DNA of 64,000 bases from the NCBI RefSeq assembly GCF_003337575.1, contig NZ_QPJM01000012.1, positions 1 to 64,000 on the forward strand, given 5' to 3'. How positions within the stretch are numbered: position 1 is the first letter of the stretch; every line of letters starts with the position of its first letter. Both the position numbers and the translations under genes were made by a program. The stretch is from Phyllobacterium bourgognense (GTDB taxonomy: Bacteria; Pseudomonadota; Alphaproteobacteria; Rhizobiales; Rhizobiaceae). Below are positions 15,713 through 58,934 of this stretch, piece after piece. Below the pieces are notes generated by a model, which saw only the letters and a list, made by a program, of their open reading frames with translations, was not told the DNA's origin and did not search any database.

Positions 15713-15803
15713 TGGCGGAGAGAGCGGGATTCGAACCCGCGTTACGCTTTTGACGTAAACACACTTTCCAGGCGTGCGCCTTCAACCACTCGGCCACCTC
15801 TCC
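15713..15803 (-). tRNA. tRNA-Ser (anticodon GGA)
   Basis: On the minus strand the sequence begins GGAGAGGTGGCCGAGTGG and ends with an encoded CCA. The acceptor arm GGAGAGG pairs with the 3' end, the T arm has GGTTCGAATCCC, and there is a long variable arm as expected for serine. The anticodon loop reads CTGGAAAG, giving anticodon GGA, which reads UCC/UCU codons. The length of 91 bases with CCA is normal. Confidence 0.96.
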
Positions 15804-44201: not shown

Positions 44202-45854
44202 ATGGCGTCAGAACAAGCGAACGGCCTCAAGCGGCAGGTGTTGGCATTGAAAGCACATTGGAAAAAGGGCGCGCCGAAAGATATGCGCGCAACCTTTGCC
44301 AGTGACCCGAAGCGCTTCTCCCGCTATTCGCTTCAGTTGGACGATTTGCTCCTCGACTGGTCGAAATGCCTTGTAGACGACGAAGCACTGTCGCTGCTTG
44401 GCGATCTGGCCAAGGTTGCCAAGGTCGAAGAACGCCGCGATGCAATGTTTGCCGGCAAACCAATCAACAATACGGAGGGCCGGGCAGTCTTGCACATAGC
44501 CCTGCGCAACCGCTCCGGCAAACCCATCAAGGTCGATGGCGAAGATGTCATGCCCGGCGTAAAGGAGGTGCTCGATCGCATGGCGGCCTTCGCCAACGGT
44601 CTGCGCTCCGGCGAAATCAAGGGCGCGAAGAACAAGCCGATCACTGACATTGTCAATATAGGCATCGGCGGTTCCGATCTCGGCCCGGCTATGGCCACAC
44701 TGGCCATGTCGCCGTACCATGATGGCCCTAAAGCGCATTTCGTCTCCAATATCGATGGCGCGCATATTGCCGATACGCTTGCCGGTCTCGATCCGGCGAC
44801 GACCCTGATCATCATCGCCTCGAAAACCTTCACCACCATCGAGACCATGACCAACGCCAAGGCAGCTCGCAAATGGATCGCCGACGCGCTGGGCGAGAAG
44901 GCCGTCGGCAAGCACTTCGCCGCTGTTTCCACTGCGCTCGACAAGGTCGACGCCTTTGGTATCCCTGCAGACCGTATTTTCGGTTTCTGGGATTGGGTTG
45001 GCGGCCGCTATTCCATCTGGTCGGCGATCGGTCTCCCGCTGATGATCGCCATCGGTCCGGAAAATTTCGGCCGCTTCCTCGATGGCGCCCATGCCATGGA
45101 CGAGCACTTCCGCAAAACCCCGCTGAAGAAAAACCTGCCGATGATGCTGGGCCTGATCGGCTACTGGCACCGCGCCATTTCGGGCTATACCAGCCGCGCC
45201 GTAATCCCTTACGATCAGCGGTTGGCTCGTTTGCCTGCATATTTGCAGCAACTCGACATGGAATCGAACGGCAAGGGCGTTACGATCGATGGCAAGCCGG
45301 TTACCGGGCCGACTGGACCCGTCGTCTGGGGTGAGCCCGGAACAAACGGCCAGCACGCGTTCTTCCAGCTTCTGCATCAGGGCACAGACACAATTCCTGT
45401 GGAGTTCATCGTTGCGGCCAAAGGTCATGAGCCGCATCTCGACAACCAGCACGAAATGCTGCTCGCAAATTGCCTCGCCCAATCCGAGGCGCTCATGCGC
45501 GGCCGCACACTGGACGAAGCCAAGGCGCAACTCGCGGCAAAGAACCTGCCCAAATCCGAGGTGAACCGCATTGCGCCGCACAGGGTTTTCACTGGCAACC
45601 GACCGTCGATCACCATCATCCATGACCTTCTTGACCCCTATACGCTCGGCCGTCTGATTGCCCTTTACGAGCACCGCGTGTTCGTCGAGGCACAGCTTTA
45701 CGGCATAAACGCCTTCGATCAGTGGGGCGTCGAGCTTGGGAAGGAACTCGCGACGGAACTCCTGCCGGTGGTCTCGGGTAAGGTAAAGCCCAAGGACAAG
45801 GACGCTTCCACGCAAGGGCTTGTCGCGCACCTGCGCAAGCGCCGGGACAAATAG
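44202..45854 (+). CDS. pgi: Glucose-6-phosphate isomerase
   Basis: A 550-residue enzyme converting glucose 6-phosphate to fructose 6-phosphate. [14 protein letters not shown] and [14 protein letters not shown] bind the phosphate, [13 protein letters not shown] and [14 protein letters not shown] are conserved, and [20 protein letters not shown] holds the catalytic Glu-His region ([18 protein letters not shown]). AGGAGA precedes the ATG. A 588-residue frame on the opposite strand is a shadow of this gene. Confidence 0.96.
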
Positions 45855-45885
45855 AGCTAAAGTCACACGAAATAATCGGAAAAGA

Positions 45886-46941
45886 ATGATGAAGACGGAA
45901 ATGATCAAAATGCCCGGCGATGTGCCGGGCAACAGCATTGAACTGCGCGTCCTGCGCTTTGAGGGCGGGAACAACGGAGCCGTCAGCGCCTATCTGCAGT
46001 CGTCGCTACATGGTTCGGAATTGCCGGGCCAGGCCGCATTGCATTTCCTCATTCCTATGCTTGAAAAGGCCGAGAGCGAAGGCCGCGTCGCTGGCAATAT
46101 CACCGTCGTTCCGCAGGCCAATCCGATCGGCTCGGCGCAATGGCAGGCGCATGAGCATCTTGGCCGTTTCGACTATTTTTCCGGCGTCAATTTCAACCGT
46201 TCTTTCCCTCTGCTCGCATCGTTCGACACCGCCGAGCTTCCGGCCGTCGATGCACCGAAGTCCCTGGCAGAACGGTTGAAGGCGCAGCTCCTGCGCTTGG
46301 CGTTACCGCATGAAATCGTGCTCGACCTGCACTGTGACGACGAGAGCGAAAGCTATCTCTATATCCATCAGGCTTTCCTGCCGGAAATGTACGATCTCGC
46401 TGCCGCGCTCGGCTCAACGGCCATTCTTTCATGGGATAGCACCGCCGATGCCGCCTTCGAGGAGGCGTGTGCGCATCCGGCCTTGCATCTGTCCGAGCAA
46501 GAGCGAAAGGCCCGCGCGGTCACCACTGTCGAGTTTCGCGGCCTGAACGATGTCGATATCGAAACCGGCAAACACGACGCCGATGGCCTGTACAGGTTCC
46601 TGGTCCATCGCGGGGTGATCATCGACGACAGCGTCAAGCTGAAGGTCGATTTCAATGGCCCGGTGACGCCACTCGAAAATGTCGAGATGATCCGTGCGCC
46701 GCAGGGCGGGATGATCCTGTTCCACGTCGATATCGGTGATGAGGTCGAAGCCGGCGCCAAGCTCGTGACGATCGTGACTGTCCCGGGTGATCCAAGCGGC
46801 AATATCACGCTGACCGCACCGCAGGCAGGACGGATACTCACGCGCCGCAGCCACCGCTATACCCGTCGCGGCGATAACCTATTGAAACTCCTCGGCGGCA
46901 AGCGTTCGGAAAGCGCCCGGCCAGGCTCGCTGGAGGCCTGA
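45886..46941 (+). CDS. Succinylglutamate desuccinylase/aspartoacylase family zinc deacylase
   Basis: A 351-residue AstE/AspA-like protein. SSLHGSELPGQAALH holds the zinc His and Glu of the carboxypeptidase-like fold, NFNRSFP a substrate-binding Arg, and DLHCDDESESYLY the second zinc His. The C-terminal part is a beta-rich biotinyl-like domain. It probably removes an N-acyl group from a small amide, but the substrate is unknown. The ATG at 45886 with GGAAAAG upstream is preferred to a GTG or ATG inside pgi. Its stop overlaps the next start by one base. Confidence 0.86.
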   Translation: MMKTEMIKMPGDVPGNSIELRVLRFEGGNNGAVSAYLQSSLHGSELPGQAALHFLIPMLEKAESEGRVAGNITVVPQANPIGSAQWQAHEHLGRFDYFSGVNFNRSFPLLASFDTAELPAVDAPKSLAERLKAQLLRLALPHEIVLDLHCDDESESYLYIHQAFLPEMYDLAAALGSTAILSWDSTADAAFEEACAHPALHLSEQERKARAVTTVEFRGLNDVDIETGKHDADGLYRFLVHRGVIIDDSVKLKVDFNGPVTPLENVEMIRAPQGGMILFHVDIGDEVEAGAKLVTIVTVPGDPSGNITLTAPQAGRILTRRSHRYTRRGDNLLKLLGGKRSESARPGSLEA

Positions 46942-47672
46942 TGCCAACGGCCCGTTCCACTGCCATACGGGGCATCCTCTTCGACAAGGATGGTACGCTC
47001 GTCGATTTCAACCGCACCTGGTTCGGAATCACCATGGAACTGGCGCACAAGGCAGCCGATGGTGATGCGGCACGGGCGCGGGCCCTTGTCGAAGCTGGCG
47101 GCTATGATTGGGAGATGGAAAAGTTTCGGGGCGGCTCGGTCATCGCCGCGGGAACGGTCAACGACATTGTCGATCTGTGGCATCCCGAATTGACAATAGA
47201 AGAAAAGCGTGAGCGCATCACGGCTTACAACGCCTATGCCGTGCAAGAAGGTTCGCGCCGTGCCATCGGCATCGAAGGGTTGCACGTGACGCTGGAAGCG
47301 CTGGTGGCACAAGGGTTTGTCCTTGGCATCGCGACCAACGACTCGGAAGCCGGCGCCCGAGCAACGGCGGAAGCGCTCGGCCTGACTGCATTGTTCAGCG
47401 TGATTATCGGTTATGATTCCGTGGCGCGCGCCAAGCCGCATGCGGACCAGCTGCATTTGTTTGCGGCCAAGACGGGCCTCGAGCCAAATTCTATCGCCAT
47501 GGTCGGCGACAACGCCCACGATCTGGAGATGGCCCATGCAGCCGGCGCCGGCCTTGCCATCGGCGTACTGTCTGGCAACAGCACGCTGGATGACCTCGCG
47601 CATCTCAGCGATGCCATCCTGGGTTCCATCGCCGAATTGCCGCGGTTTCTGGAAAAGCGTGCTCAATCTTAA
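46941..47672 (+). CDS. HAD-superfamily hydrolase (phosphoglycolate-phosphatase-like)
   Basis: A 243-residue HAD phosphatase. GILFDKDGTLVDFNRTW is motif I (FDKDGTLVDF), LGIATNDSE motif II, AKPHADQL with the motif III Lys, and MVGDNAHDLEMAHAAGAG motif IV. A helical cap follows motif I. It starts inside the stop codon of the desuccinylase-like gene (TGATG), so the two are translationally coupled. Substrate unknown. Confidence 0.9.
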   Translation: MPTARSTAIRGILFDKDGTLVDFNRTWFGITMELAHKAADGDAARARALVEAGGYDWEMEKFRGGSVIAAGTVNDIVDLWHPELTIEEKRERITAYNAYAVQEGSRRAIGIEGLHVTLEALVAQGFVLGIATNDSEAGARATAEALGLTALFSVIIGYDSVARAKPHADQLHLFAAKTGLEPNSIAMVGDNAHDLEMAHAAGAGLAIGVLSGNSTLDDLAHLSDAILGSIAELPRFLEKRAQS

Positions 47673-47780
47673 TCTAGAGCACCGCCACCTCCGATTGCTA
47701 TGATGACAATGATTTGAGTGCCTGTTACGGATCGCGGTGCTATCAATCCTTCGCATTGTAAGACCTAAAGCGAGGACAGC

Positions 47781-48770
47781 ATGGACAGTCAGGGTTTGGC
47801 GATTGATATAGGTGACGTCGAGGCCGCCGCAGCGAGGCTCAAGGGCCAGATCGTGTCGACGCGGCTTGTAGAATCCGAAGCCCTGAATGCGAAGTACAAG
47901 GCGCGTATCCTGTTCAAGCCCGAATGTCTGCAACGCACGGGCTCGTTCAAATTCCGCGGCGCTTATAACCGCATCAGCCAGTTCACCGACGACGAACACG
48001 GGCGCGGTATCATCGCCTATTCCTCGGGCAATCACGCTCAGGGCGTTGCCAGCTCAGCCAAGCTATTCGGCATTCATGCCACCATCATCATGCCGCTTGA
48101 CGCCCCGCAGACAAAGGTTGCAAACACGCGTTCCTATGGCGCGGAAGTCGTGTTTTACGATCGCTACAACCAAACGCGCGATGAAGTCGCCGCACCCTAT
48201 ATCGAGGAGCGTGGCATGATCCTTGTACCGCCCTATGACGATCCATCCATCATGGCGGGGCAGGGAACGATCGGTCTTGAACTTGTGGCCGAGGCCAATG
48301 AGCGGGGGCTCACACTCGACGAATTGTTCGTACCGACCGGCGGCGGCGGCCTTATCAGCGGCATTTCCGTGGCGGTGAAGGCTGGTTCTCCTGGAACGCG
48401 CATCTGGGGCGTCGAGCCGGAGAACTTCGATGATCTGCGCCGTTCGCTCATCGCGGGGCAGCCGGTTGCCAATGAACCCGGTCATCGTTCGATCTGCGAT
48501 GCGATCCTGACGCCGCAACCGGGCAATCTCACCTTCCCGGTCAACAAGCGCAATCTCGCCGGCGCCATTGCGGTCACCGATGACGCCGTGAAGGCGGCGA
48601 TGCGCGATGCAGCGAATTACCTGAAATTGATTGTCGAACCCGGCGGCTGCGTCGGGCTTGCGGCTTTGGCAAGCGGCGAAGTCGATATCGAGGGCAAGAC
48701 AGTTGCTGTCGTCCTATCCGGCGGCAATGTCGATCTCGACCTCTATGGCGAATTCATCGCGGCAGCTTAG
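47781..48770 (+). CDS. Threonine/serine dehydratase (PLP-dependent)
   Basis: A 329-residue fold-type II PLP enzyme. GSFKFRGAYNRIS carries the Schiff-base Lys (SFKFRGA), SSGNHAQGVA the substrate loop, GGGGLISG the phosphate-binding glycine loop, and VLSGGNVDL the C-terminal Ser/Gly segment. There is no ACT regulatory domain, so it is the short catabolic form, acting as threonine ammonia-lyase or serine dehydratase/racemase. These activities cannot be told apart here. Confidence 0.88.
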   Translation: MDSQGLAIDIGDVEAAAARLKGQIVSTRLVESEALNAKYKARILFKPECLQRTGSFKFRGAYNRISQFTDDEHGRGIIAYSSGNHAQGVASSAKLFGIHATIIMPLDAPQTKVANTRSYGAEVVFYDRYNQTRDEVAAPYIEERGMILVPPYDDPSIMAGQGTIGLELVAEANERGLTLDELFVPTGGGGLISGISVAVKAGSPGTRIWGVEPENFDDLRRSLIAGQPVANEPGHRSICDAILTPQPGNLTFPVNKRNLAGAIAVTDDAVKAAMRDAANYLKLIVEPGGCVGLAALASGEVDIEGKTVAVVLSGGNVDLDLYGEFIAAA

Positions 48771-48789
48771 AGGCGTGATATACGCGCGT

Positions 48790-48818
48790 CTGTCATCATA
48801 TTGTTACTCTGGCATCAT
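48790..48818 (+). promoter_or_regulatory. Candidate Pho box upstream of phoX
   Basis: CTGTCAT (48790-48796), then CATA, then TTGTTAC (48801-48807), then TCTG, then GCATCAT (48812-48818): three 7-mers at 11-base spacing. The PhoB consensus is direct repeats of CTGTCAT/C with 4-base gaps. The first half-site is perfect, the others degenerate. It lies 61 bases before the phoX start, consistent with phosphate-starvation control. Confidence 0.65.
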
Positions 48819-48878
48819 AGCGGGGAGATACGTTTAAGAGACGTTGAGGACCCAGCCAGATAGCCAGAGGTAAGCGCC

Positions 48879-50879
48879 ATGAACGACCAGTCTCAGCCAT
48901 TCCGCACCAGCCAGCTCGAGGAGAATGACGGTCCGGGCCACAACCCGACCGACAATGCCACTATGGGCGAACTCATTGCCGCGCGCTTCTCGCGGCGGGG
49001 TTTTCTCAAGGGCTCTCTCGCCGTATCCGCCATCGCCGCTACTGTCAGCCCCATGGCGCTGATGATGGCCGACGATGCACGCGCCGGCGAGAGCAAGTCG
49101 GCTTTCACTTTTGAGGAGGTCGAGGTCGGCATCGATGAGACGCACCATGTCGCCGCCGGGTATGACGCGGATGTCCTGTTGCGCTGGGGTGATGGCATTT
49201 TTGCAGATTCGCCCGAGTTCGATCCGCTGAACCAGACACCGGAAAGCCAGGCCAAGCAGTTCGGCTACAATAATGACTATGTCGGTTATATTCCGATCGA
49301 CGGTTCTTCCGAGCACGGCCTGCTCGTCGTCAATCACGAATATACCAATGAACATCTGATGTTCCCGGGTATCGTCAAAGTCGTCAAGGATGACAAAGGC
49401 GACGCCAAGATCGAGATCGCGCCGGCTGACCAGAAGCGTGTCGACATCGAAATGGCCGCCCATGGCGGCACTATTGTCGAAATCAAAAAGACCGATGGCA
49501 AGTGGCAGGTCGTCAAGGACGGCAAGCTCAACCGCCGCATCACTGCCAACACGGAAATGCAATTGTCCGGCCCGGTTGCCGGGCACGATCGTGTCAAGAC
49601 CAATGCCGATTCGTCCGGCAAAAAGGTGTTCGGCATGATCAATAATTGCTCGGGTGGTGTTACGCCCTGGGGCACCTATGTCTCGGGTGAAGAAAATATC
49701 CATGGCTATTTCACCGGAAAACTGCCGGAGGGCAGCAAGGAAGCCGCCAATTACAAGCGCATGGGCATTCCTGAAGGCGTCTACGACTGGGGCAACTTCC
49801 ATGATCGCTTCGATCTGTCGAAGGATCCGAACGAGGCTAACCGCTTTGGCTGGGTGGTCGAGATCGATGTGAACGATCCCAATTCCATTCCCAAGAAGCG
49901 CACTGCCATGGGCCGGTTCAAGCATGAGGGCGCCGATTCCATCGTCGCCAAGGACGGCCGTGTCGTATTCTATCTCGGCGATGATGAACGCTTCGATTAT
50001 GTCTATAAATTCGTCACCACCGGAAAATTCAATCCGGACGACCGCGCCGCCAATATGGATCTTCTGGATGATGGCACGCTTTACGTTGCCAAATTCGATG
50101 TCGACGGCACCATCAACTGGCTGCCGGTCGTCTTCGGCCAAGGGCCGCTGACAGAAGCCAATGGCTTTGCCAGCCAGGCAGACGTGTTGATCGAAACCCG
50201 CCGTGCCGGCGATCTGCTTGGAGCGACGAAGATGGATCGCCCCGAAGACATTGGCCCGAACGGGGTCAATGGCAAGGTCTATGTGATGCTGACCAACAAC
50301 ACCAAGCGCAAGGACGATCAGGTTGATGCCGTCAATCCGCGCGCCAAAAACGCCTTCGGCCATATAGTCGAGATTGCCGAGGAAGACGGCAATTTCGCCG
50401 CCGCCAAGGGCAAGTGGGAAATCCTCTTGAAATGCGGTGATCCATCGGTTGCCGATGTAGGCGCATCCTTCTCTACCGATACGACCAAGAATGGCTGGTT
50501 CGGCATGCCGGACAATTGCGCTGTCGATGCGGAAGGCCGCCTTTGGGTGTCAACCGATGGCAATTCACCGAAAGAAACCGGCCGCACCGATGGCATCTGG
50601 GCCGTGGATACGGACGGCCCCGCGCGCGGCACGTCGAAACTGTTCTTCCGCGTGCCGGTCGGTGCGGAAATGTGCGGCCCGCTCATGCTGCCGGATATGG
50701 CGACCTTCATGGTTGCCGTCCAGCATCCGGGCGATGGCGGCGAGGATTGGAAGCCCTTCGGCCGCCCATCCTATTATGAGGACCTGTCCACCCGCTGGCC
50801 GGACTTCAAGGACAATATGCCGGTTCGCCCCTCTGTCCTCGCCATCACCAAAAAGGGCGGTGGCAAGATCGGCGTTTGA
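48879..50879 (+). CDS. phoX: PhoX-family alkaline phosphatase
   Basis: A 666-residue exported phosphatase (DUF839/PhoX). A Tat signal is present: FSRRGFLKGSLAVSA, with the twin Arg at 39-40 and cleavage near residue 69 (ARAGES). SSEHGLLVVNHEYTNEH and NNCSGGVTPWGTYVSGEEN are hallmark metal-binding segments, and RPEDIGPN and MPDNCAVDAEGRLWVSTDG follow. PhoX releases phosphate from organic esters in the periplasm using calcium and iron. A candidate Pho box lies upstream. Confidence 0.93.
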   Translation: MNDQSQPFRTSQLEENDGPGHNPTDNATMGELIAARFSRRGFLKGSLAVSAIAATVSPMALMMADDARAGESKSAFTFEEVEVGIDETHHVAAGYDADVLLRWGDGIFADSPEFDPLNQTPESQAKQFGYNNDYVGYIPIDGSSEHGLLVVNHEYTNEHLMFPGIVKVVKDDKGDAKIEIAPADQKRVDIEMAAHGGTIVEIKKTDGKWQVVKDGKLNRRITANTEMQLSGPVAGHDRVKTNADSSGKKVFGMINNCSGGVTPWGTYVSGEENIHGYFTGKLPEGSKEAANYKRMGIPEGVYDWGNFHDRFDLSKDPNEANRFGWVVEIDVNDPNSIPKKRTAMGRFKHEGADSIVAKDGRVVFYLGDDERFDYVYKFVTTGKFNPDDRAANMDLLDDGTLYVAKFDVDGTINWLPVVFGQGPLTEANGFASQADVLIETRRAGDLLGATKMDRPEDIGPNGVNGKVYVMLTNNTKRKDDQVDAVNPRAKNAFGHIVEIAEEDGNFAAAKGKWEILLKCGDPSVADVGASFSTDTTKNGWFGMPDNCAVDAEGRLWVSTDGNSPKETGRTDGIWAVDTDGPARGTSKLFFRVPVGAEMCGPLMLPDMATFMVAVQHPGDGGEDWKPFGRPSYYEDLSTRWPDFKDNMPVRPSVLAITKKGGGKIGV

Positions 50880-50939
50880 GTACTGTTGGTTGCTCCCGGG
50901 GATGATCTATCATCCAGCCGGACCCTCATCCGCTCCACG

Positions 50940-50962
50940 ATCCTCGGGTCTAGCCCGAGGAT
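50940..50962. repeat. Short palindromic intergenic hairpin after phoX
   Basis: ATCCTCGGG (50940-50948) pairs with CCCGAGGAT (50954-50962) around TCTAG. This ATCCTCGGGtctaGCCCGAGGAT sequence is a common dispersed hairpin in Alphaproteobacteria. It may terminate phoX, though there is no long T run. Confidence 0.6.
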
Positions 50963-51041
50963 AACGGAGGGATGGCTTGATCATCGGAGAGAGACGCGCT
51001 CTCAGATAGTCTGAGCAGGCAGCCGTCGCACAAGTCCGGAA

Positions 51042-51203
51042 TCAGCGGCGCGACATCTCGCGCGCGATGCGGGCGAAATCCGCCTGCTTGATGCCGATAT
51101 CGGCGCGATCCCGCGCGCTCATGCCCTGCAGCATGGCAAGCGCCTCGCGGTAGGCACTGTCATTGGCGCGGCGGCGGATGGCGAAATCAATCAGAAAGCT
51201 CAT
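51042..51203 (-). CDS. DUF1127 small protein
   Basis: A 53-residue arginine-rich protein: MSFLIDFAIRRRANDSAYREAL, then LQGMSARDRADIGIKQADFA (shown here in part) and ending REMSRR. The S-x-R-x-L/A-x-D-I-G-I core is the DUF1127 signature; such proteins in related bacteria bind RNA or affect phosphate and stress metabolism. AGGAAA precedes the ATG at 51203; a longer reading from 51281 is not supported. Confidence 0.85.
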   Translation of the reverse strand: MSFLIDFAIRRRANDSAYREALAMLQGMSARDRADIGIKQADFARIAREMSRR

Positions 51204-51445
51204 GGCCTGTTTCCTGGTGGCGTTGTTTAACAGGCACAGAATAGGCGGAGAGGTGGTTATTGTGCAGTGCAATATCCGCATGGGAGGTATGTGATCGATT
51301 CGTAATTATAAAAATCGGACAAGCAATCGGAGTACTGGTTACAAAAGCGCCAAAATACAATTCATATACTGTGCATGAAATGAAACTCTTGGTTGTTATT
51401 TTTTGACCTTGGTTGAGAATTCACTTCGGTAAGGGGTGATTCATT

Positions 51446-52336
51446 ATGAATAATTGGGAAGATCAATTTAACACGTGGTCGCAGGCGCCGAGCCAAGCTG
51501 AACAGGACCGGTCCCAAAGAATTGTACGTGAAATATCCGATGCGATTAATGCATCCCCAAAACTTGCACACCGGAAGATCGAGGTATTTCCCCAAGGAAG
51601 CTACGCCAACCGTGTAAATGTTAAGCGAGACAGCGACGTCGACATTTGTTGCCTCTGTCGTGACACATTTCACTACAACTTACCGACAGCCCGAACCGCT
51701 ACCGATTATTCGTTCGAACCAGCCACTTACACCTACACGCAATATAAGAGCGAAGTTGAAGAAGCGCTTATCGATAGATTTGGTCGGTCGGCCGTTCAGA
51801 GAGGTAACAAAGCAATCGACGTGCATGATAAGACGAGATTGATTGACGCTGATGTCGTGGCGACATTCGAGTACAGGGACTATTCTGCTCCTCCTTTCGC
51901 GCGAGACTACTCAGAAGGAACGGTCCTTTTCTCTGACGATGGAAATTTAGTTACAAATTTTCCATCACAGCAGTATAGCAATGGTGTGGCAAAACATGAT
52001 CGAACAAACCGCCGGTTTAAACGTCAAGTTAGGATACAAAAATCTCTTCGTAATAAGATGGAGGCTGAAGGCCTAACAGTCGCAGAGCCGATAAAATCGT
52101 TTCTTATCGAAAGTCTTTGCTGGAATGCTCCAGATGACAATTATGGAAACACCACCTACGTCTCCGATTTCGAGAACGTCATGAATTGGTCCTATTCAAA
52201 AACAGGAACAGACGACGAGACCTTTGCACTGCTAGAGGTTAACGCGAGAAAGCGACTTTTTGCGGCACAAAATTCATGGACCCGTTTGCAGCTACGGCAA
52301 TATCTGGAAAGCGCGTGGGCGTACGCGCACCAATGA
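51446..52336 (+). CDS. CBASS CD-NTase (cyclic oligonucleotide synthase, SMODS-type nucleotidyltransferase)
   Basis: A 296-residue cGAS/DncV-like nucleotidyltransferase. FPQGSYANRVNVKRDSDVDI carries the polymerase-beta G-S motif (Gly51-Ser52) and the D-x-D metal pair (Asp64, Asp66); a third acidic residue lies in LIDADVVA (134 or 136). EPIKSFLIESLCWN is typical of the helical C-terminal half. Such enzymes make cyclic di- or trinucleotides on phage infection and switch on the neighbouring effector. AAGGGG precedes the ATG by about 9 bases. Its TGA overlaps the phospholipase start by 4 bases. The gene is A+T richer than its neighbours (45% GC in the line at 51961). The product nucleotide and clade cannot be told. 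Confidence 0.88.
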   Translation: MNNWEDQFNTWSQAPSQAEQDRSQRIVREISDAINASPKLAHRKIEVFPQGSYANRVNVKRDSDVDICCLCRDTFHYNLPTARTATDYSFEPATYTYTQYKSEVEEALIDRFGRSAVQRGNKAIDVHDKTRLIDADVVATFEYRDYSAPPFARDYSEGTVLFSDDGNLVTNFPSQQYSNGVAKHDRTNRRFKRQVRIQKSLRNKMEAEGLTVAEPIKSFLIESLCWNAPDDNYGNTTYVSDFENVMNWSYSKTGTDDETFALLEVNARKRLFAAQNSWTRLQLRQYLESAWAYAHQ

Positions 52337-53304
52337 CAGGGCAGCCCAAAGTGAAGCCGCACGGCAAGCCCTTTAGAATCCTGACTCTTGATGGTGGCGG
52401 GTCTAAAGGCATTTATACTGTGGGAGTATTAAATGAACTGGAAGCCCACCTCTCCAACGGGCCCTTGGCAAACTCTTTCGACTTAATTTACGGGACCAGC
52501 ACGGGAGCCATAATCGCTGCACTAGTCGCCTTAGGAGAGACTGCGGACGAGATAACTCGCTTGTATTTCGAAATCATCCCATGCGTTATGAGGAGTAATA
52601 CGGCGTCAGAGCGAACGCTTTCCCTACAAAAACATTCGGAACGTATATTTGGAGAGCGCAAATTTGACAGCTTCCGAACAAAAGTTGGCATCGTCTCAAC
52701 AAATTATCATTTTAGCCGGCCAACGATATTTAAGAGCCATGCCGCTCAAGCCTTTAGTATGCAGAAGTCGTTTAAGCCGGGTTTCGGATGCACAATTTCT
52801 GAGGCGGTACTAGCATCAACGGCGGCGCTTCCCTTTTTTCTCAAACGTGACGTTCTTCTTGAAAATCAAGGACCCACCGCTTTGATCGACGGGGGTTTCG
52901 TTGCCAATAATCCGACCCTATATGCAATTACGGATGCAGTTGGTGCATTGAAAGTTCCCGTTGAACATTTGCACATATTAAGTATTGGGGTTGGCCAGTA
53001 CGTTCAAGCCGACCCGAAAATGAGCTGGTTCGAACGGAAAAAACTCAATTTTCTAAAGAAGAATTTTCCAGTAGATATTTTGGAGAAGACTCTAGACGCG
53101 AGTGCAATGTCAACAGAGATTTTAGTGCGGTTTATTTTTGAGAATCTCAAATATGTTCGGATAAATGATTCTTATATTGACAATGGATTTGCGACAAATC
53201 TGTTGGAACATGACCGAGAAAAACTGCAGCGGATGTACCAATTGGGGCGAACTTCGTTCGGTCGACAGCAATCTGCGATTGAGATCTTGCTCGACGCTCA
53301 TTGA
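52333..53304 (+). CDS. capV: CapV-like patatin phospholipase, CBASS effector
   Basis: A 323-residue patatin-like phospholipase. LTLDGGGSKGIYTVGVL is the oxyanion-hole motif (DGGGSKG), YGTSTGAI holds the nucleophile Ser56 (GxSxG) and LIDGGFVANNP the catalytic Asp186. In type I CBASS the CD-NTase product activates CapV, which degrades the inner membrane and stops phage spread by killing the cell. The start ATG at 52333 overlaps the CD-NTase stop (ATGA); an in-frame ATG at 52276 would extend it by 19 residues into the upstream gene. No Cap2/Cap3 or HORMA/TRIP13 genes follow, so this is the two-gene form. Confidence 0.9.
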   Translation: MTGQPKVKPHGKPFRILTLDGGGSKGIYTVGVLNELEAHLSNGPLANSFDLIYGTSTGAIIAALVALGETADEITRLYFEIIPCVMRSNTASERTLSLQKHSERIFGERKFDSFRTKVGIVSTNYHFSRPTIFKSHAAQAFSMQKSFKPGFGCTISEAVLASTAALPFFLKRDVLLENQGPTALIDGGFVANNPTLYAITDAVGALKVPVEHLHILSIGVGQYVQADPKMSWFERKKLNFLKKNFPVDILEKTLDASAMSTEILVRFIFENLKYVRINDSYIDNGFATNLLEHDREKLQRMYQLGRTSFGRQQSAIEILLDAH

Positions 53305-53507
53305 TGGATGCTATCCCCGAACTGCTCTTCCTGCTCCACAGTCAGCGGTTTGATGCCGGGGTCAAGCGTTTCGGGCTGGTCGTCGCCTTGCGCGATGGGC
53401 GCGGGTACAGGCGGGGTGCGCGGCGCGGTCGTGCTGCAGCCGGCAAACGCCGCGCTGCACAGGATCAGAGCGAGAAGCGAGAGAGTGGCTGGGCGCATAG
53501 GGCTCAT
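53298..53507 (-). CDS. Small lipoprotein of unknown function
   Basis: A 69-residue lipoprotein with a hydrophobic signal (LSLLALILCSAA) and lipobox AFAGC, followed by a Pro-rich stretch and an acidic end. I do not recognise the family. Its 3' end overlaps the convergent phospholipase gene by 7 bases, so the final residues (GDSIHQ) may have been altered when the CBASS genes arrived. It lies downstream of lepA on the same strand. Confidence 0.6.
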   Translation of the reverse strand: MSPMRPATLSLLALILCSAAFAGCSTTAPRTPPVPAPIAQGDDQPETLDPGIKPLTVEQEEQFGDSIHQ

Positions 53508-53519
53508 CAAGACGGGGAA

Positions 53520-53539
53520 TTGAGGGCCGGAGCCCTCAA
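53520..53539 (-). terminator. Hairpin overlapping the lepA stop, possible terminator
   Basis: TTGAGGGC (53520-53527) pairs with GCCCTCAA (53532-53539) around CGGA. The stem covers the lepA stop codon and has no T run, so it may serve as a termination or mRNA-end signal only. Confidence 0.4.
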
Positions 53540-55344
53540 CTATCGCCCATCTTCAGCGCCTGGATGAACGCTTCCTGAGGGATTTCGACCTTGCCGAACT
53601 GCCGCATGCGCTTCTTGCCTTCCTTCTGCTTTTCCAGAAGCTTGCGCTTGCGCGAGACGTCGCCGCCATAGCACTTGGCCGTCACGTCCTTGCGCAGGGC
53701 GGAGATGGTTTCGCGCGCGATCACCGTGCCGCCGATTGCCGCCTGGATCGGGATCTTGAACATGTGCTTGGGGATCAGGTCCTTCAGCTTTTCGCAAAGG
53801 TCGCGGCCGCGCTTTTCGGCGGCGGCGCGGTGCACCATCATCGACAATGCGTCGACGGGTTCGCCATTCACCAGCACCGACATCTTGACGAGATTGCCTT
53901 CGCGATAATCCGACAGATGATAATCGAAAGAGGCATAGCCCTGGCTGATCGACTTCAGCCGGTCGTAGAAATCGAACACCACCTCGTTGAGCGGCAGGTC
54001 GTAGGTGACCATGGCGCGCTTGCCGACATAGTTGAGATCGATCTGGATGCCGCGGCGGTCCTGGCACAGCTTGAGGATCGAGCCGAGATAATCATCGGGA
54101 GTGAGGATCGTCGCGCGGATCCACGGTTCCTCGATGGAGGCGATCTTCATCACCTCCGGCATGTCGGCGGGATTGTGCAATTCGCGCTGCGTGCCGTCGG
54201 TCATGTTGAGCTTGTAGACGACGCTCGGCGCGGTGGCGATGAGATCGAGGTTGAACTCGCGCTCCAGCCGCTCCTGGATGATCTCGAGGTGCAGCAGCCC
54301 GAGGAAGCCGCAACGGAAGCCGAAACCGAGCGCGGCGGAGCTTTCCATCTCGAACGAGAACGACGCATCGTTGAGGCGCAGGCGGCCCATGGCGGCGCGC
54401 AAATCCTCGAAATCAGCCGCATCGACGGGGAAGAGGCCGCAGAAGACCACAGGTTGCGCCGGCTTGAAACCGGGCAGGATCGACGCGGTCGGGCGCTTGT
54501 CCTCGGTGATGGTATCGCCGACGCGGGTGTCGGCGACTTCCTTGATCGAGGCGGTGATGAAGCCGAACTCGCCGGGGCCAAGCTCATCGACGGCGAGCAT
54601 CTTCGGCGTGAACACGCCGGTGCGCTCGACCGGATATTTGGCGCCGGTGCCCATCATGCGAATGGTCTGGCCCTTTTTCAGGACGCCATCGATGATGCGC
54701 ACAAGCACGATGACGCCGAGATAGGCATCGTACCAGCTATCGACCAGCATGGCCTTCAGCGGCTTGGTGCTGTCACCCTCGCGCGGCGGCGGCAGCTGGT
54801 TGACGATGGCTTCCAGCACATCCGGAATACCGAGGCCGGTCTTGGCGGAGATGAGCACGGCCTGGCTCGCATCGATGCCGATGACCTCCTCGACCTGCTC
54901 GCGGATACGCTCGGGCTCGGCAGCGGGAAGATCGACCTTGTTCAAGACCACGACGATCTCGTGGTTGTTGTCGATGGCCTGATAGACATTGGCAAGCGTC
55001 TGCGCCTCGACGCCCTGCGAGGCATCGACGACGAGCAAGGAACCTTCGCAGGCGGACAGCGACCGCGATACCTCATAGGCGAAATCGACGTGGCCGGGCG
55101 TGTCGATCAGGTTGAGGACATAGGTCTCGCCATTGTTGGCCTTGTAGTTCAGCCGGACGGTCTGCGCCTTGATGGTAATGCCGCGCTCGCGCTCGATATC
55201 CATCGAGTCGAGCACCTGCTCCTTCATGTCGCGCAGCTCCAGCCCGCCCGTCGATTGGATCAGCCGGTCGGCAAGGGTGGATTTGCCATGGTCGATATGG
55301 GCGACGATGGAGAAATTACGAATGTGATCTAGTGGAGTGCTCAT
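53536..55344 (-). CDS. lepA: Elongation factor 4 (LepA)
   Basis: A 602-residue translational GTPase that back-translocates or remodels stalled ribosomes. [22 protein letters not shown] opens the protein ([14 protein letters not shown] is the P-loop), DTPGHVDF is G3 and NKVDLP G4. The LepA-specific C-terminal domain is present ([20 protein letters not shown] in part). The ATG at 55344 gives the usual family start. A 522-residue frame on the other strand is a shadow. Confidence 0.96.
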
Positions 55345-55417
55345 GCGCGCCACATAGAGCATTTCGGGCGGATTTGGAAGGGTAGCGTGCGGGCGGTGAC
55401 AGAATAGCGGAGAATAA

Positions 55418-55460
55418 TTTTACCCGGGTATATTGACGAGGGTGTTTTACCCGGGTAAAA
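55418..55460 (+). promoter_or_regulatory. Twin TACCCGGGTA operators before the DUF2239 gene
   Basis: TACCCGGGTA occurs at 55421-55430 and 55448-55457, centres 27 bases apart. The second is the core of a 16-base perfect palindrome, TTTTACCCGGGTAAAA (55445-55460). A likely -35 (TTGACG, 55433-55438) lies between them and a -10-like TAAAAG (55456-55461) overlaps the second, the classic layout for repression. The regulator is not encoded adjacent. Confidence 0.68.
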
Positions 55461-55488
55461 GCCTGCCATCCAACAGGTGAGCAGGATC

Positions 55489-56049
55489 ATGGAAACGACA
55501 GAACAGACATGCACGGCCTTTCAGGGCATGCGGAAGATCGCGAGCGGAACGCGGGTAGAGGTGGCGCTGGCGCTGAAGCGCGCGGGCGATACTGGCGAGG
55601 CGATCCTCGTTTTCGACGATGCCACTGGGAAACAGGTGGAATTCGACCTGCGCGGCAGCGATGCGGAGGTCGCCGCGCGGCTGGATACGAGCGAACCGCG
55701 CAAGCCGGGGCGGCCGAGGCTCGGCGTTACGGCACGTGAGGTAACGCTGCTGCCGCGGCAGTGGGACTGGCTGAGCAGCCAGCCGGGCGGCGCTTCCGTT
55801 ACGTTGCGCAAGCTGGTCGATGCGGCACGTAACGAAAATGGCGGGCGCGAAAGGAAGCGGCAGGCGCAAGCTGCTGCCGACAGCTTCATGATGGCGATGG
55901 CCGGCAACCAGCCGCACTACGAAGAAGCGGCGCGGGCGCTCTATGCGGGCAACGTTCAGCGCTTCACGGATTTGACTGAAGGCTGGCCCGAAGACGTGCG
56001 CGACCATGTGCGCGGTTTGAGCGAGCCGGCATTTGGCTGGGAGGACTGA
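55489..56049 (+). CDS. DUF2239 family protein
   Basis: A 186-residue protein with the DUF2239 blocks: KPGRPRLGVTAREVTLLPRQWDWL, shown here as VTAREVTLLPRQWDWL, followed by QPGGASVTLRKLVDAAR and EEAARALYAGNVQRF, ending WPEDVRDHVRGL. The VTLLPRHW-type segment suggests a helical fold of unknown activity. The gene is divergent from lepA and lies directly after a double palindromic operator, implying tight regulation. Function unknown. Confidence 0.85.
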   Translation: METTEQTCTAFQGMRKIASGTRVEVALALKRAGDTGEAILVFDDATGKQVEFDLRGSDAEVAARLDTSEPRKPGRPRLGVTAREVTLLPRQWDWLSSQPGGASVTLRKLVDAARNENGGRERKRQAQAAADSFMMAMAGNQPHYEEAARALYAGNVQRFTDLTEGWPEDVRDHVRGLSEPAFGWED

Positions 56050-56232
56050 CCCGAGCGCTCGGCAAGCCTCATACCTTCGTCTAGAACGTCAGAATCTGGC
56101 ACGCTTGTTGCATTCCAAGTTTTGTTAGCCGACGGGGCCGCGTCCATTTCAAGCGGCCCTGCCATCGATATTTTGTGTGTTTCAACGCGGATCATTCGCT
56201 GCGGCGGGCATCTGCCAGATCAGGAGTTTCCA

Positions 56233-57276
56233 ATGAACAAATGGAAGACGCGGGAATCGACCCGCGCGTGCCTGTTCAGTGCGCTGCTTGCGCTTTTGAT
56301 GGGCTGTAACAATGACAGTGGCGTGGCCCCAGCGACACCGCCCGTTGCCAATCAGAACACGCCCGAAGGAACATTTGTTGGTGAGACGGATTTGGATGAA
56401 GGCGATGTCGTCGACGACACCAAGGTGCCGAACGAGCCGGTGGTTGGCGTTGTCACGGCCGTTCCGGACACCGAGCCAAAACCGGTGATTTCTAACCCGT
56501 CCCCGTGGGAGCAAACCATAATCACACAAGGCGAGGTGAAGACATATGTGGAACCCGCTAAACGTTTCATCGAGGTAGCGCCGGATACTACTGGTGGCGC
56601 TATCTACCACTCATCGCCGCCCCTCGAATATGACCTCGGCAATCTCGTTACGATGAACACTGCTGATTCGATCGCCTTTACTGATGGCAGAGCCCTTGTT
56701 ACGCCCGTCAAAGGCAGGCTATTTTATCCTGAAAGTCCACTCAACGCTTCAACGGCCACCGAGCGTTTTCCGATCATCATTTTCTTGCATGGGATGCATA
56801 GTTGGAGCGATCCCAGCTACAAAGGCTACGACTATCTTGCCCGCGACCTTGCTGAGCACGGCTACGTCGTGGCCTCAATCGACGCGAACGTCATCAATTC
56901 CACTCGCTTTGATAATGCCTCCGGCCTATCCCGTGCGCAGCTGGTATTGGGAATGCTGGACCGTTTGCGCCAGATTGATGGATTTGGTCAGGTGGACCTC
57001 GGGGGCAATCGGGGAAAGCTCGATCCGTTAAGAGGTAGTCTTGATTTCGCTCGAATAGGACTCATGGGCCATTCGCGCGGCGGGCAGGGAATTGTGAACG
57101 CAATCCTTTTCAACGAAACCCGGCGTGGCGTTACGGAAGGCGAGCTGAAAGAACGCCTGAAGCATTTACCCACCCCGCTCGAAGCATTGCGCAAGATCTT
57201 TTCCAGCAGCTCAGACGCAACACTTCGATCACTCATTTCGGCGGCGCCGGAGTCGACGACGCCACTGCGAAAATAA
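56233..57276 (+). CDS. Lipoprotein alpha/beta-hydrolase, N-terminal part (frame broken at 57276)
   Basis: A 347-residue product with a lipoprotein signal (LLALLMGC, Cys25) and an acidic proline-rich linker. Residues from about 125 form an alpha/beta-hydrolase core: IIFLHGMHSW is the oxyanion-hole loop and LMGHSRGGQG holds the nucleophile Ser281. The frame ends at TAA 57274-57276 within a hydrolase domain that plainly continues in the next frame at 57288. It is therefore the front of one interrupted gene. The ATG is preceded by CAGGAG. Confidence 0.78.
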   Translation: MNKWKTRESTRACLFSALLALLMGCNNDSGVAPATPPVANQNTPEGTFVGETDLDEGDVVDDTKVPNEPVVGVVTAVPDTEPKPVISNPSPWEQTIITQGEVKTYVEPAKRFIEVAPDTTGGAIYHSSPPLEYDLGNLVTMNTADSIAFTDGRALVTPVKGRLFYPESPLNASTATERFPIIIFLHGMHSWSDPSYKGYDYLARDLAEHGYVVASIDANVINSTRFDNASGLSRAQLVLGMLDRLRQIDGFGQVDLGGNRGKLDPLRGSLDFARIGLMGHSRGGQGIVNAILFNETRRGVTEGELKERLKHLPTPLEALRKIFSSSSDATLRSLISAAPESTTPLRK

Positions 57277-57290
57277 TCGTCGAGACGGTG
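57229..57290 (+). other. Frameshift zone in the alpha/beta-hydrolase gene
   Basis: The frame moves by -1 (equal to a one-base loss or a two-base gain) somewhere here. The upstream frame ends CGA AAA TAA. The other frame, GCG AAA ATA ATC GTC, reads on as KIIVETVMDPSG. Slippage on AAAA before the stop, a base lost from an A run, or an earlier deletion near ATCACTCATTTC (reading SITHFGGAGVDDAT) would all fit. Confidence 0.7.
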
Positions 57291-58934
57291 ATGGATCCCT
57301 CCGGCCTGAAAATCCCCTATCCCGATCTCATCAATGCGATCATACCTGCTTCGGGAACCAAACCAATCGGTATTGACAATGCAACATTTCAGGCAGCCAT
57401 CAGCAAGTACAATATATTCTATGCTGCTGGCAGTGAGAATACCAACGGCAATGACGCTGCCTACTATACGTTCAAAGGAGCCTTCCTCGTGGGACCCACG
57501 GATTTTGGTGGCAATAGTGGTCTGAGTAATGTTCCCCTCGCCGTATTACTTCCATCCTGCGATGGTGATATGGCCAATCTTCAGGGCGCTTCCACCTACG
57601 ATCGCAACCGTTTCGGTCGCACGGGCGACGTAGCACCGCGATACCAGGTCATGGTGAATGGCGCAAACCACAATGACTATAACACGATTTGGACGAACGA
57701 GGACTTTACGTTCAACACTGAAGCGAAAACCTGGCGTGGACCCCAACACTGCAACCGTGACGTCAAACAGAAGGATAACATTCGTCTAAGTCGGGAGGAT
57801 CAACGACGCACCGGCCTCTTCGTCATAAACTCCTTCATGCGCTATCACGTCGGCGATGAGAAAAAATTCCAATCCTGGTGGAGCGGAGCGGCGCAATTGC
57901 CCAATGAGACCTGCCCATCCGGCAAGGGACCCTGCGACGAAAGAATAGTACTGACGGTACAGAGAGCGGCCAATGATCGACTTCGCATCCAAAACTTCGA
58001 GTGGGCTGACAGCTTGCGGCTCAATCTTATTGGCGGCGCAGTAAGTTTTTCCGGGTTCGATGAGAAGGCAAAATGTATTTTGCCCTCAGTTGCAGATGTT
58101 GGCGGCAATTGCACACTGAAGCGGCTCTCCGGCTTTGAGTATTCTGGCTGGGGAGGCAAAGGGCTCCTGTCTATTGCCGATCATGTTGAACTGGCCTGGT
58201 CAAAGCCAAAGGAAGAAGCTGGAAAGCAGCCTGTCCAAGCAGAGCGGGCAATCATTAGCGATTTGAAAGACCTTTCCGCCAAAGACTACGATTCACTCAC
58301 CTTCCGCATAGCGGTGGTGCGCCCGATGGGTCAGGAAGTATTGGTGACACTCACCGACACCGCCGGCAAATCGGCCACCGTGACGGCGAGCAATTTCACC
58401 AATGCACTCTATAATGCGCCGAGACGTAAGACCTATCCAGTCAAAACAGTACCGGTCGCCAATGCTTCAATTGGCCTGCCTGATCCCGCCAAAGCAAACT
58501 CGACTATGGTTGATCTGATTGGCCAACAAGCTCCTTTCGAAAGCCCGCCTGCGGTTACTTTGGTCGCCCCACCTGAACCTGATCCTGCCAGGGATATTCC
58601 GTTGCTGGATCATACGGCCGACGCGCCCTACGCCAACGGCGAAGTGAAAATGCTCTTGAACATGGTTGCTATTCCGCTGCAAGCCTTTGAGGGGATAGAT
58701 CTTGCCCACCTCGACAAACTGAAGCTCGCTTTCCCAAAGGAAAGCGGCAAGGTGGCGATCACCGATATCGAGTTGCAGAACTTCGGACGTGCGGAGCGGC
58801 TGGCGGAGATTGCACTGGAGCAGGCTGGCATAGTCAGCGGGTCGGGCGCCGGTATTGCGCTTAACGGAAATGGAGGGCCGCCCAAGTCCGCCTCTGGCAA
58901 GCCTGAGGACAAGCAACTGATTCTCAATCATTGA
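57288..58934 (+). CDS. Alpha/beta-hydrolase lipoprotein, C-terminal part (continuation of 56233 gene)
   Basis: A 548-residue frame that continues the interrupted hydrolase. VLLPSCDGDMANLQG holds the catalytic Asp region (LPSCDGDMANL), and NGANHNDYNTIW the catalytic His region, as in secreted polyester-hydrolase/chlorophyllase-like enzymes. A beta-rich C-terminal half of about 350 residues with repeated LxDTxGKSATVT elements follows. Starting from GTG 57288 it lacks a ribosome binding site and a nucleophile, so it is unlikely to work alone. Substrate unknown. Confidence 0.72.
   Translation: MMDPSGLKIPYPDLINAIIPASGTKPIGIDNATFQAAISKYNIFYAAGSENTNGNDAAYYTFKGAFLVGPTDFGGNSGLSNVPLAVLLPSCDGDMANLQGASTYDRNRFGRTGDVAPRYQVMVNGANHNDYNTIWTNEDFTFNTEAKTWRGPQHCNRDVKQKDNIRLSREDQRRTGLFVINSFMRYHVGDEKKFQSWWSGAAQLPNETCPSGKGPCDERIVLTVQRAANDRLRIQNFEWADSLRLNLIGGAVSFSGFDEKAKCILPSVADVGGNCTLKRLSGFEYSGWGGKGLLSIADHVELAWSKPKEEAGKQPVQAERAIISDLKDLSAKDYDSLTFRIAVVRPMGQEVLVTLTDTAGKSATVTASNFTNALYNAPRRKTYPVKTVPVANASIGLPDPAKANSTMVDLIGQQAPFESPPAVTLVAPPEPDPARDIPLLDHTADAPYANGEVKMLLNMVAIPLQAFEGIDLAHLDKLKLAFPKESGKVAITDIELQNFGRAERLAEIALEQAGIVSGSGAGIALNGNGGPPKSASGKPEDKQLILNH

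What the first reader, a model, noticed from the sequence alone, without database searches (positions are those of the whole stretch)
51446..53304. Minimal two-gene type I CBASS anti-phage system
The sequence shows a CD-NTase with intact GS...DxD active site followed by a patatin-like lipase with intact GxSxG and DGG motifs, overlapping by ATGA. This pairing is the established CBASS synthase/CapV module. It is A+T richer than its surroundings and sits between housekeeping-type genes. The nucleotide made and the phage trigger are unknown, and the enzyme may belong to a less studied clade.
Basis: partly seen in the sequence, partly recalled or inferred. Interest (0 to 1): 0.82.

Follow-up and report, generated by a model that had tools for sequence, protein, structure and literature searches.

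The report
Hybrid CdnE–CapE CBASS phage-defence pair
A two-gene bacterial anti-phage alarm system (an enzyme that makes a nucleotide signal and a membrane-cutting lipase that the signal should switch on) is really there, but the enzyme and the lipase come from branches that normally have other partners, so it is an unusual natural hybrid of a known kind of system.

Summary
In detail: 51446-52336 encodes a full-length CD-NTase with intact active site, followed with an ATGA overlap by a full-length patatin lipase (52333-53304) with intact GxSxG and DGG. It is best read as a type I CBASS operon. (1) The lipase is CapE-like (cUMP-AMP-activated phospholipase, 1.8e-71), not CapV (4e-13). (2) The pairing is not the usual one. 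The cyclase is nearest to cUU-type CdnEs; 78 of 84 fetched relatives have a 2TM/Cap15-like effector downstream and two have CapE. CapE lipases normally lie upstream of another CdnE branch. So the pair is crossed and inverted, as in one sister locus (L101); L049 is probably a second event. The cyclase has a unique lid-3 residue (N276; Gln in 68 of 76 aligned 2TM-paired relatives) and the lipase departs from CapE at 17 of 91 conserved columns. I predict a retuned uridine-containing signal, probably cUA (inference; L049 and L101 do not share the change). The 2-kb insert occupies a variable spot beside lepA; five of 13 relatives read there carry other recognised defence proteins. No phage, product or toxicity test could be run.

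The parts
51296..53314 (.). Inserted segment (about 2,019 bp, 45.5% GC) in a spot that holds other cargo or almost nothing in the genus-mates read
   Evidence: Homology with genus relatives stops at about 51295 and resumes at about 53315; GC lowest in window
51446..52336 (+). cdnE-like CD-NTase, 296 aa, catalytic GS/DVD/D136 intact; lid 1 N179, lid 2 H184, lid 3 N276-S-W278, donor-side E264
   Evidence: PADLOC PDLC00801 1.4e-104; PDB 7x4f cyclic dipyrimidine nucleotide synthase 8.4e-60 over residues 3-294; residue table; lid names from PMC10442399, positions mapped by alignment
52333..53304 (+). capE-like patatin phospholipase, 323 aa, S56/D186 intact; ATGA overlap with cdnE
   Evidence: PADLOC PDLC00755 3e-110; PDB 9iom cUMP-AMP-activated phospholipase 1.8e-71; NCBIfam NF053870 400.7 bits against cut-off 400
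51431..51436 (+). Shine-Dalgarno-like AAGGGG upstream of cdnE
   Evidence: Read directly in the sequence; not tested
51042..51281 (-). Left flank: small conserved gene (79-aa ORF; about 53 aa if started at the internal Met)
   Evidence: matched in several genus relatives
53298..53498 (-). Right flank: 66-aa lipoprotein-like gene whose last codons and stop overlap the end of capE
   Evidence: right-flank homology starts at about 53315
53536..55362 (-). lepA (elongation factor 4), core gene next to the spot
   Evidence: family recognised by eye, no profile run; right-flank DNA present in 20 of 20 genus genomes, own included
48879..50881 (+). PhoX-family phosphatase, left neighbour
   Evidence: some plasmid relatives are annotated PhoX family phosphatase

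Best explanation
It is a type I CBASS operon of hybrid make-up. A phage cue, possibly a structured phage RNA as shown for CdnE03 of Staphylococcus (inferred by kinship), switches on the CdnE-clade cyclase. The cyclase joins two nucleoside triphosphates into a cyclic dinucleotide that holds at least one uridine, because the uracil-reading Asn of lid 1 is kept. The CapE-like lipase binds it, hydrolyses membrane phospholipids and stops growth of the infected cell before phage release. The cyclase comes from the branch of the cyclic-dipyrimidine CdnEs, which normally drives a 2TM/Cap15-like effector; the lipase comes from the branch normally driven by cUMP-AMP and placed upstream of its cyclase. 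The unique N276-S-W278 at lid 3 (normally (R/Q)xW) and the divergence of the lipase suggest that one or both were retuned after the swap, most likely to cUA, less likely with the lipase shifted to cUU. Shown: gene content, intact motifs, branch membership, rarity of the pairing among fetched loci, insertion at a variable spot that holds defence genes in relatives. Inferred: phage trigger, product, lipase activation, cell death. The confidence is for the hybrid type I CBASS reading as a whole; the rivals about the signal are not exclusive of it.
For: Profiles and motifs. Closest solved relatives: 7x4f, 7x4a, 7x4c (206, 187, 166 bits) ahead of 6e0m and 6e0k (122, 121 bits) for the cyclase; 9iom cUMP-AMP-activated phospholipase for the lipase. 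Partner census: 78 of 84 fetched relatives of the cyclase branch have a 2TM effector downstream, 2 have CapE, 4 none seen; 29 of 30 other-branch CdnEs have CapE upstream (19 of these 30 were fetched through the lipase). Sister L101 repeats the cyclase-then-lipase order and pairs with the window cyclase at SH-aLRT 96 and 99. Lid 3: Gln in 68 of 76 aligned 2TM-paired relatives, Asn only in the window among 111 rows; PMC10442399 (section 9 read) reports that changing R or W of (R/Q)xW to Ala lets EfCdnE make cUA and cUG. The lipase departs at 17 of 91 columns conserved in 28 canonical CapEs; L101 and L028 at 0, L049 at 4. The spot holds recognised defence proteins in 5 of 13 relatives read.
Against: No activity, product or phage test. 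L049 has a CapE lipase yet keeps QPW at lid 3, so a lid-3 change is not needed for the pairing. L101, the sister, has Arg at lid 1 and lost the lid-3 Trp, so it does not share the window's residues. Eight of 76 2TM-paired relatives also lack Gln at lid 3, and 13 of 76 lack its Trp. The window keeps W278 and E264, so a cUU product remains possible. Branches of the window lipase and of L101 are long, so the trees may mislead; one clade of all three CapE-paired cyclases fits worse but is not rejected (p-AU 0.059). Lipase divergence could be relaxed constraint rather than retuning. The Lp, Cl and EfCdnE sequences themselves were not in the tree; branch membership rests on the scores.
Confidence: 0.72

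Rival explanations
1. Ordinary CdnE-CapE CBASS: same workings and signal (cUA) as the known pair, the residue differences being drift; nothing special beyond gene order.
For: Both proteins score high on CBASS models; lid-1 Asn and catalytic residues intact.
Against: The cyclase is on the other CdnE branch (PDLC00801 ahead of PDLC00788; tree) and lacks the Cys at the donor position found in 26 of 28 CapE-partner cyclases.
Confidence: 0.3
2. The cyclase kept its branch's product (cUU, perhaps 2'3'-linked) and the lipase was retuned to it, giving a cUU-gated phospholipase.
For: E264 and W278 kept; lipase on a very long branch with 17 of 91 conserved CapE columns changed.
Against: Gln of (R/Q)xW, proposed to close the donor pocket, is replaced by the shorter Asn only here (PMC10442399).
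Confidence: 0.28
3. Decaying or silent acquired operon: the partners no longer match and the divergence is loss of constraint.
For: Long branches; no cyclase relative in 19 genus-mates; no sigma-70-like site upstream in a scan that found no more sites than shuffles.
Against: Both frames open and full length, catalytic residues and the ATGA coupling kept.
Confidence: 0.12
4. CapV-type cGAMP module.
For: Patatin domain is shared.
Against: CapV-named chains score 3.8e-13 and 9.9e-13, a cGAMP-activated phospholipase 6.7e-16 and three chains named Patatin about 5e-17, against 1.8e-71 for 9iom; NCBIfam CBASS_lipase 146.3 bits, cut-off 200; no DncV-type chain among the cyclase's PDB matches.
Confidence: 0.03

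Closest known systems
Cyclic-dipyrimidine CdnE with Cap15 (LpCdnE, ClCdnE, EfCdnE; PMC10442399)
   Same: Best-scoring solved relatives over the full length, lid-1 Asn, donor-side Glu, lid-3 Trp; in the fetched relatives the cyclase comes first
   Different: Partner is a patatin lipase, not a 2TM/Cap15 protein; lid 3 is NSW instead of (R/Q)xW; lid 2 is His (as reported for Cl and Ef, not Lp)
CdnE-CapE CBASS (cUMP-AMP-activated phospholipase, PDB 9iom; plasmid examples L025-L027, L029, L031)
   Same: Lipase family and catalytic motifs (39-47% identity)
   Different: Cyclase from another CdnE branch (26-33% identity); gene order inverted; 17 of 91 conserved lipase columns differ
DncV-CapV CBASS
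   Same: Two-gene CD-NTase plus patatin logic
   Different: Lipase far nearer to CapE than to CapV; cyclase nearest to CdnEs
DS-2 (phospholipase + cGAS-like + diadenylate cyclase; DefensePredictor, PMC13092281, passages read)
   Same: Lipase just passes the DS2_1 model (400.7 bits, cut-off 400)
   Different: Cyclase is under the DS2_2 cut-off (181.4 bits, cut-off 350); no diadenylate cyclase gene beside the pair

Membership tests
CBASS | CD-NTase with GS...DxD and third acidic residue | tested here: met
   PADLOC 1.4e-104
CBASS | Cap effector encoded in the same operon | tested here: met
   ATGA overlap, PADLOC Effector/Phospholipase 3e-110; co-transcription not tested
CBASS | Cyclic oligonucleotide made and sensed by the effector | not testable with these tools
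   needs biochemistry
CBASS | Protection against phage | not testable with these tools
   needs plaque assays; location in a spot with other defence proteins is indirect support
Type I CBASS | No Cap2/Cap3 or HORMA/TRIP13 genes in the operon | tested here: met
   neighbours on both sides are conserved host genes, judged by position and homology, not by a profile search of each
CdnE, cyclic-dipyrimidine branch | Sequence nearest to Lp/Cl/EfCdnE | tested here: met
   phmmer ranking of solved structures, PADLOC ranking
CdnE, cyclic-dipyrimidine branch | lid-3 (R/Q)xW motif | tested here: not met
   N276-S-W278
CdnE, cyclic-dipyrimidine branch | Paired with 2TM/Cap15 effector | tested here: not met
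   CapE-like lipase instead
CapE lipase family | Closer to cUMP-AMP-activated phospholipase than to CapV | tested here: met
   1.8e-71 against 3.8e-13 for CapV; NF053870 passed
CapE lipase family | Activation by cUMP-AMP | not testable with these tools
   ligand pocket residues not mapped; conserved columns changed
CapV lipase family | NCBIfam CBASS_lipase cut-off | tested here: not met
   146.3 bits, cut-off 200
DS-2 | Third gene: diadenylate cyclase | tested here: not met
   flanks are a small conserved gene and a lipoprotein gene/lepA

The most novel reading that the evidence does not exclude
A natural effector swap with co-evolved rewiring: a cUU-branch CdnE captured a CapE lipase, and its donor pocket (Gln to Asn at lid 3) and the lipase's conserved core changed so that the pair now speaks a private signal, cUA or another uridine-containing dinucleotide, different from that of the cyclase's own branch.
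Probability: 0.3. Interest if true: 0.62.

Novelty: new variant of a known kind. Interest (0 to 1): 0.42.

Why it matters
CBASS cyclases and effectors must agree on one nucleotide. Rare hybrids such as this one, with its sister L101 and the probably separate L049, let one ask directly how signal specificity changes when partners are exchanged, and whether the lid-3 rule found by mutagenesis also operates in nature. The spot beside lepA is also a small, defined place to look for further defence genes in this genus.

Tried and rejected
CapV/cGAMP module: rejected on profile and PDB-sequence scores. DS-2: rejected, no third gene beside the pair and DS2_2 cut-off not reached. Phage-borne origin: no match to the cyclase in 50,697 phage records at E 1e-5; the two viral-contig relatives of the cyclase (L114, L115) carry the usual 2TM effector. 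Relatives in E. coli: none by blastn. Direct repeats: none in 50882-53560; five inverted pairs, none at the insert ends. The only tRNA in the window is far away (15713-15803). No Rfam match in 45000-58000. Promoter and terminator scan: no more sites than shuffles.

A 26-aa, 77% lipase match in G015 (L013) was dropped: the locus gave no ORF match to either lipase query. A frameshift as the cause of L101's odd lid 3 was tested by reading its end in three frames and not found. Literature: searches for CapE, CdnE specificity and Cap15, DS-2, the defence spot and partner exchange showed no description of this pairing in the titles and abstract starts listed (lists were capped). The library is partial; work on CapE and cUA from 2019-2020 is recalled, not read. 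Papers opened: PMC10442399 (abstract, sections 4, 9, 11, passages), PMC13092281 (passages), PMC10686824 (passages).

I did not try again, so no model was made and no fold search run.

Full report
Observation. The first matches PADLOC Cyclase PDLC00801 at 1.4e-104 and the second PADLOC Phospholipase PDLC00755 at 3e-110, both over nearly the whole length. Pfam finds Patatin (5.6e-27) but nothing above its cut-off in the cyclase. In the PDB the cyclase's best match is 7x4f, a cyclic dipyrimidine nucleotide synthase (8.4e-60, residues 3-294), then 7x4a (ClCdnE) and 7x4c (EfCdnE); 6e0m and 6e0k follow at 2.9e-34 and 8.4e-34. The lipase's best match is 9iom, a cUMP-AMP-activated phospholipase (1.8e-71). 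Chains named CapV give 3.8e-13 and 9.9e-13, a cGAMP-activated phospholipase 6.7e-16, and three chains named Patatin about 5e-17. Catalytic residues are intact (and direct reading).

Which branches. On plasmids, the nearest cyclases (42%, Vibrio) are followed by a 210-aa protein, of which one (L022) was scanned and matches PADLOC 2TM effectors at 5.8e-98. CapE-like lipases on plasmids (41-46% identity) lie upstream of a different CdnE in L025, L026, L027, L029 and L031; one such cyclase (L026) was scanned and matches PDLC00788 best. One CapE-like lipase (L028) lies beside a DncV-like cyclase and a ThiF-family gene, so these lipases have more than one kind of partner.

Partner census. A scan of genome contigs gave 67 relatives of the cyclase. 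Searches of 397 order, 297 family, 385 class and 398 phylum genomes, of 136 genomes of G256's family, and of viral contigs added more. Classified by script: of 84 fetched cyclases nearer to the window's than to the other branch's query, 78 have a 2TM effector downstream, one has CapE downstream (L101), one has CapE upstream (L049, Verrucomicrobia), and 4 show none (L040, L093, L094, L120). Of 30 cyclases of the other branch, 29 have CapE upstream (one of them, L110, with a 2TM gene as well); in the last (L030) an IS21 element splits the locus. Left out are cyclase matches under 75 bits (L095, L098) and loci without a CdnE match (such as L028, L171). Nineteen of the 30 were fetched through the lipase, which favours CapE there; the 84 were found through the cyclase. 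Some rows are near-copies (L043 and L044 are identical), so these are sequences, not events. A divergent 2TM protein could be missed by the single-sequence search. PADLOC confirms L049 and L101 as PDLC00801 + PDLC00755.

Trees. With 80 cyclases (quick IQ-TREE) the window and L101 are sisters (SH-aLRT 96; 99 in a 67-row rerun without some long or near-copy rows) inside the 2TM-paired branch, and L049 lies elsewhere. Holding all three together costs 35.7 log-likelihood units, p-AU 0.059: two separate swaps are favoured but one is not rejected. In the lipase tree (33 rows) the window has by far the longest branch (4.88), then L049 2.04, the canonical L109 1.43 and L101 1.22; placements are unsure. 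The window lipase departs from 17 of 91 columns conserved in 28 canonical CapEs, L049 from 4, L101 and L028 from 0. The columns were chosen on the canonical set, so only these four are fair comparisons.

Specificity residues. PMC10442399 names lid 1 (Asn, reads acceptor uracil), lid 2, and lid 3, the (R/Q)xW motif, whose R/Q pairs with a Glu to narrow the donor pocket; R or W to Ala in EfCdnE allows cUA and cUG. On an alignment of 111 cyclases the window has N179 (lid 1), H184 (lid 2), E264 and N276-S-W278. At 276, 68 of 76 2TM-paired relatives have Gln; the other 8 have P, D or E and also lack Trp (Trp in 63 of 76). Asn occurs only in the window. Lid-2 His is seen in the window, L049, 4 of 76 2TM-paired, and 26 of 28 CapE-partner cyclases of the other branch; L101 has Asn there. 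The donor Glu is kept in the aligned members of the window branch that cover it, while the other branch has Cys in 26 of 28, as the paper reports for the cUA maker RmCdnE; that the other branch is RmCdnE-like is inferred from this. Against a simple rule: L049 keeps QPW, and L101 has Arg at lid 1 and lost the lid-3 Trp; L101's end is not a frameshift. A cUA product is my first guess, cUU the second.

Trigger. Passages of PMC10686824 report that a structured phage RNA activates the Staphylococcus CdnE03 (partner Cap15, product 3',2'-cGAMP). Whether the window enzyme senses RNA is unknown.

Place in the genome. One copy was found in the genome, and none of 19 genus-mates has the cyclase. DNA shared with genus-mates ends at about 51295 and resumes at about 53315, at the 3' end of a 66-aa lipoprotein-like gene beside lepA. 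Fourteen of 19 genus-mates were fetched here and 13 inserts read (G017's left anchor was too weak). Ten proteins from eight of these were scanned. Five genomes carry proteins that PADLOC recognises: dCTP deaminase (G013, part of the profile only), ShosA/ShosT (G002), PDC-M11A/B (G008), Drt9 reverse transcriptase (G018, part of the profile), an AriA/OLD/GajA-like ATPase (G003). Proteins of G009, G006 and G012 match nothing in PADLOC or Pfam. G019 has, by eye, the same kind of gene as G008 (not scanned). Four stretches are short (157-769 bp: G007, G014, G015, G016; not scanned). The insert is the A+T-richest 2 kb of the window. No direct or terminal repeats were found, and no integrase-like gene was seen in the insert. 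The family is probably Rhizobiaceae-like (plasmid hits of the PhoX neighbour, and genome sizes of relatives; inference).

Verdict. What is unusual is the cross-pairing and inverted order, with a unique lid 3 and a divergent lipase. It is a new variant of a known kind; function is inferred from family.

Noticed in passing
window 51296-53314 and L144-L157: Strain-variable insertion spot beside lepA in this genus: recognised defence proteins in 5 of 13 genus-mates read (dCTP deaminase, ShosA/T, PDC-M11, Drt9, AriA/OLD-like) and short or near-empty stretches in four.
   Followed up: partly
L148:2199-3038, L156:2462-3277, L149:2781-4082: Proteins of 280, 272 and 434 aa at the same spot in G009, G012 and G006 with no PADLOC or Pfam match; candidates for undescribed defence genes.
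   Followed up: no
L028:2989-6894: A CapE-like lipase next to a DncV-like cyclase and a ThiF-family gene on an Ancylobacter plasmid: another kind of CapE partner.
   Followed up: no
L066, L067, L068, L070: Candidate-phyla genomes (Paceibacterota, Campbellbacteria, Parcubacteria, one unnamed bacterium) carry this CdnE branch with a 2TM effector, lid-2 His and Cys in place of the lid-3 Trp.
   Followed up: no
L110:2-2376: A 2TM-effector-like ORF lies just upstream of a CapE-CdnE pair, suggesting two effectors in one locus.
   Followed up: no
L030:4977-9330: Sphingobium plasmid with a CapE gene split from its CdnE by an IS21 element; a second lipase piece lies on the far side.
   Followed up: no
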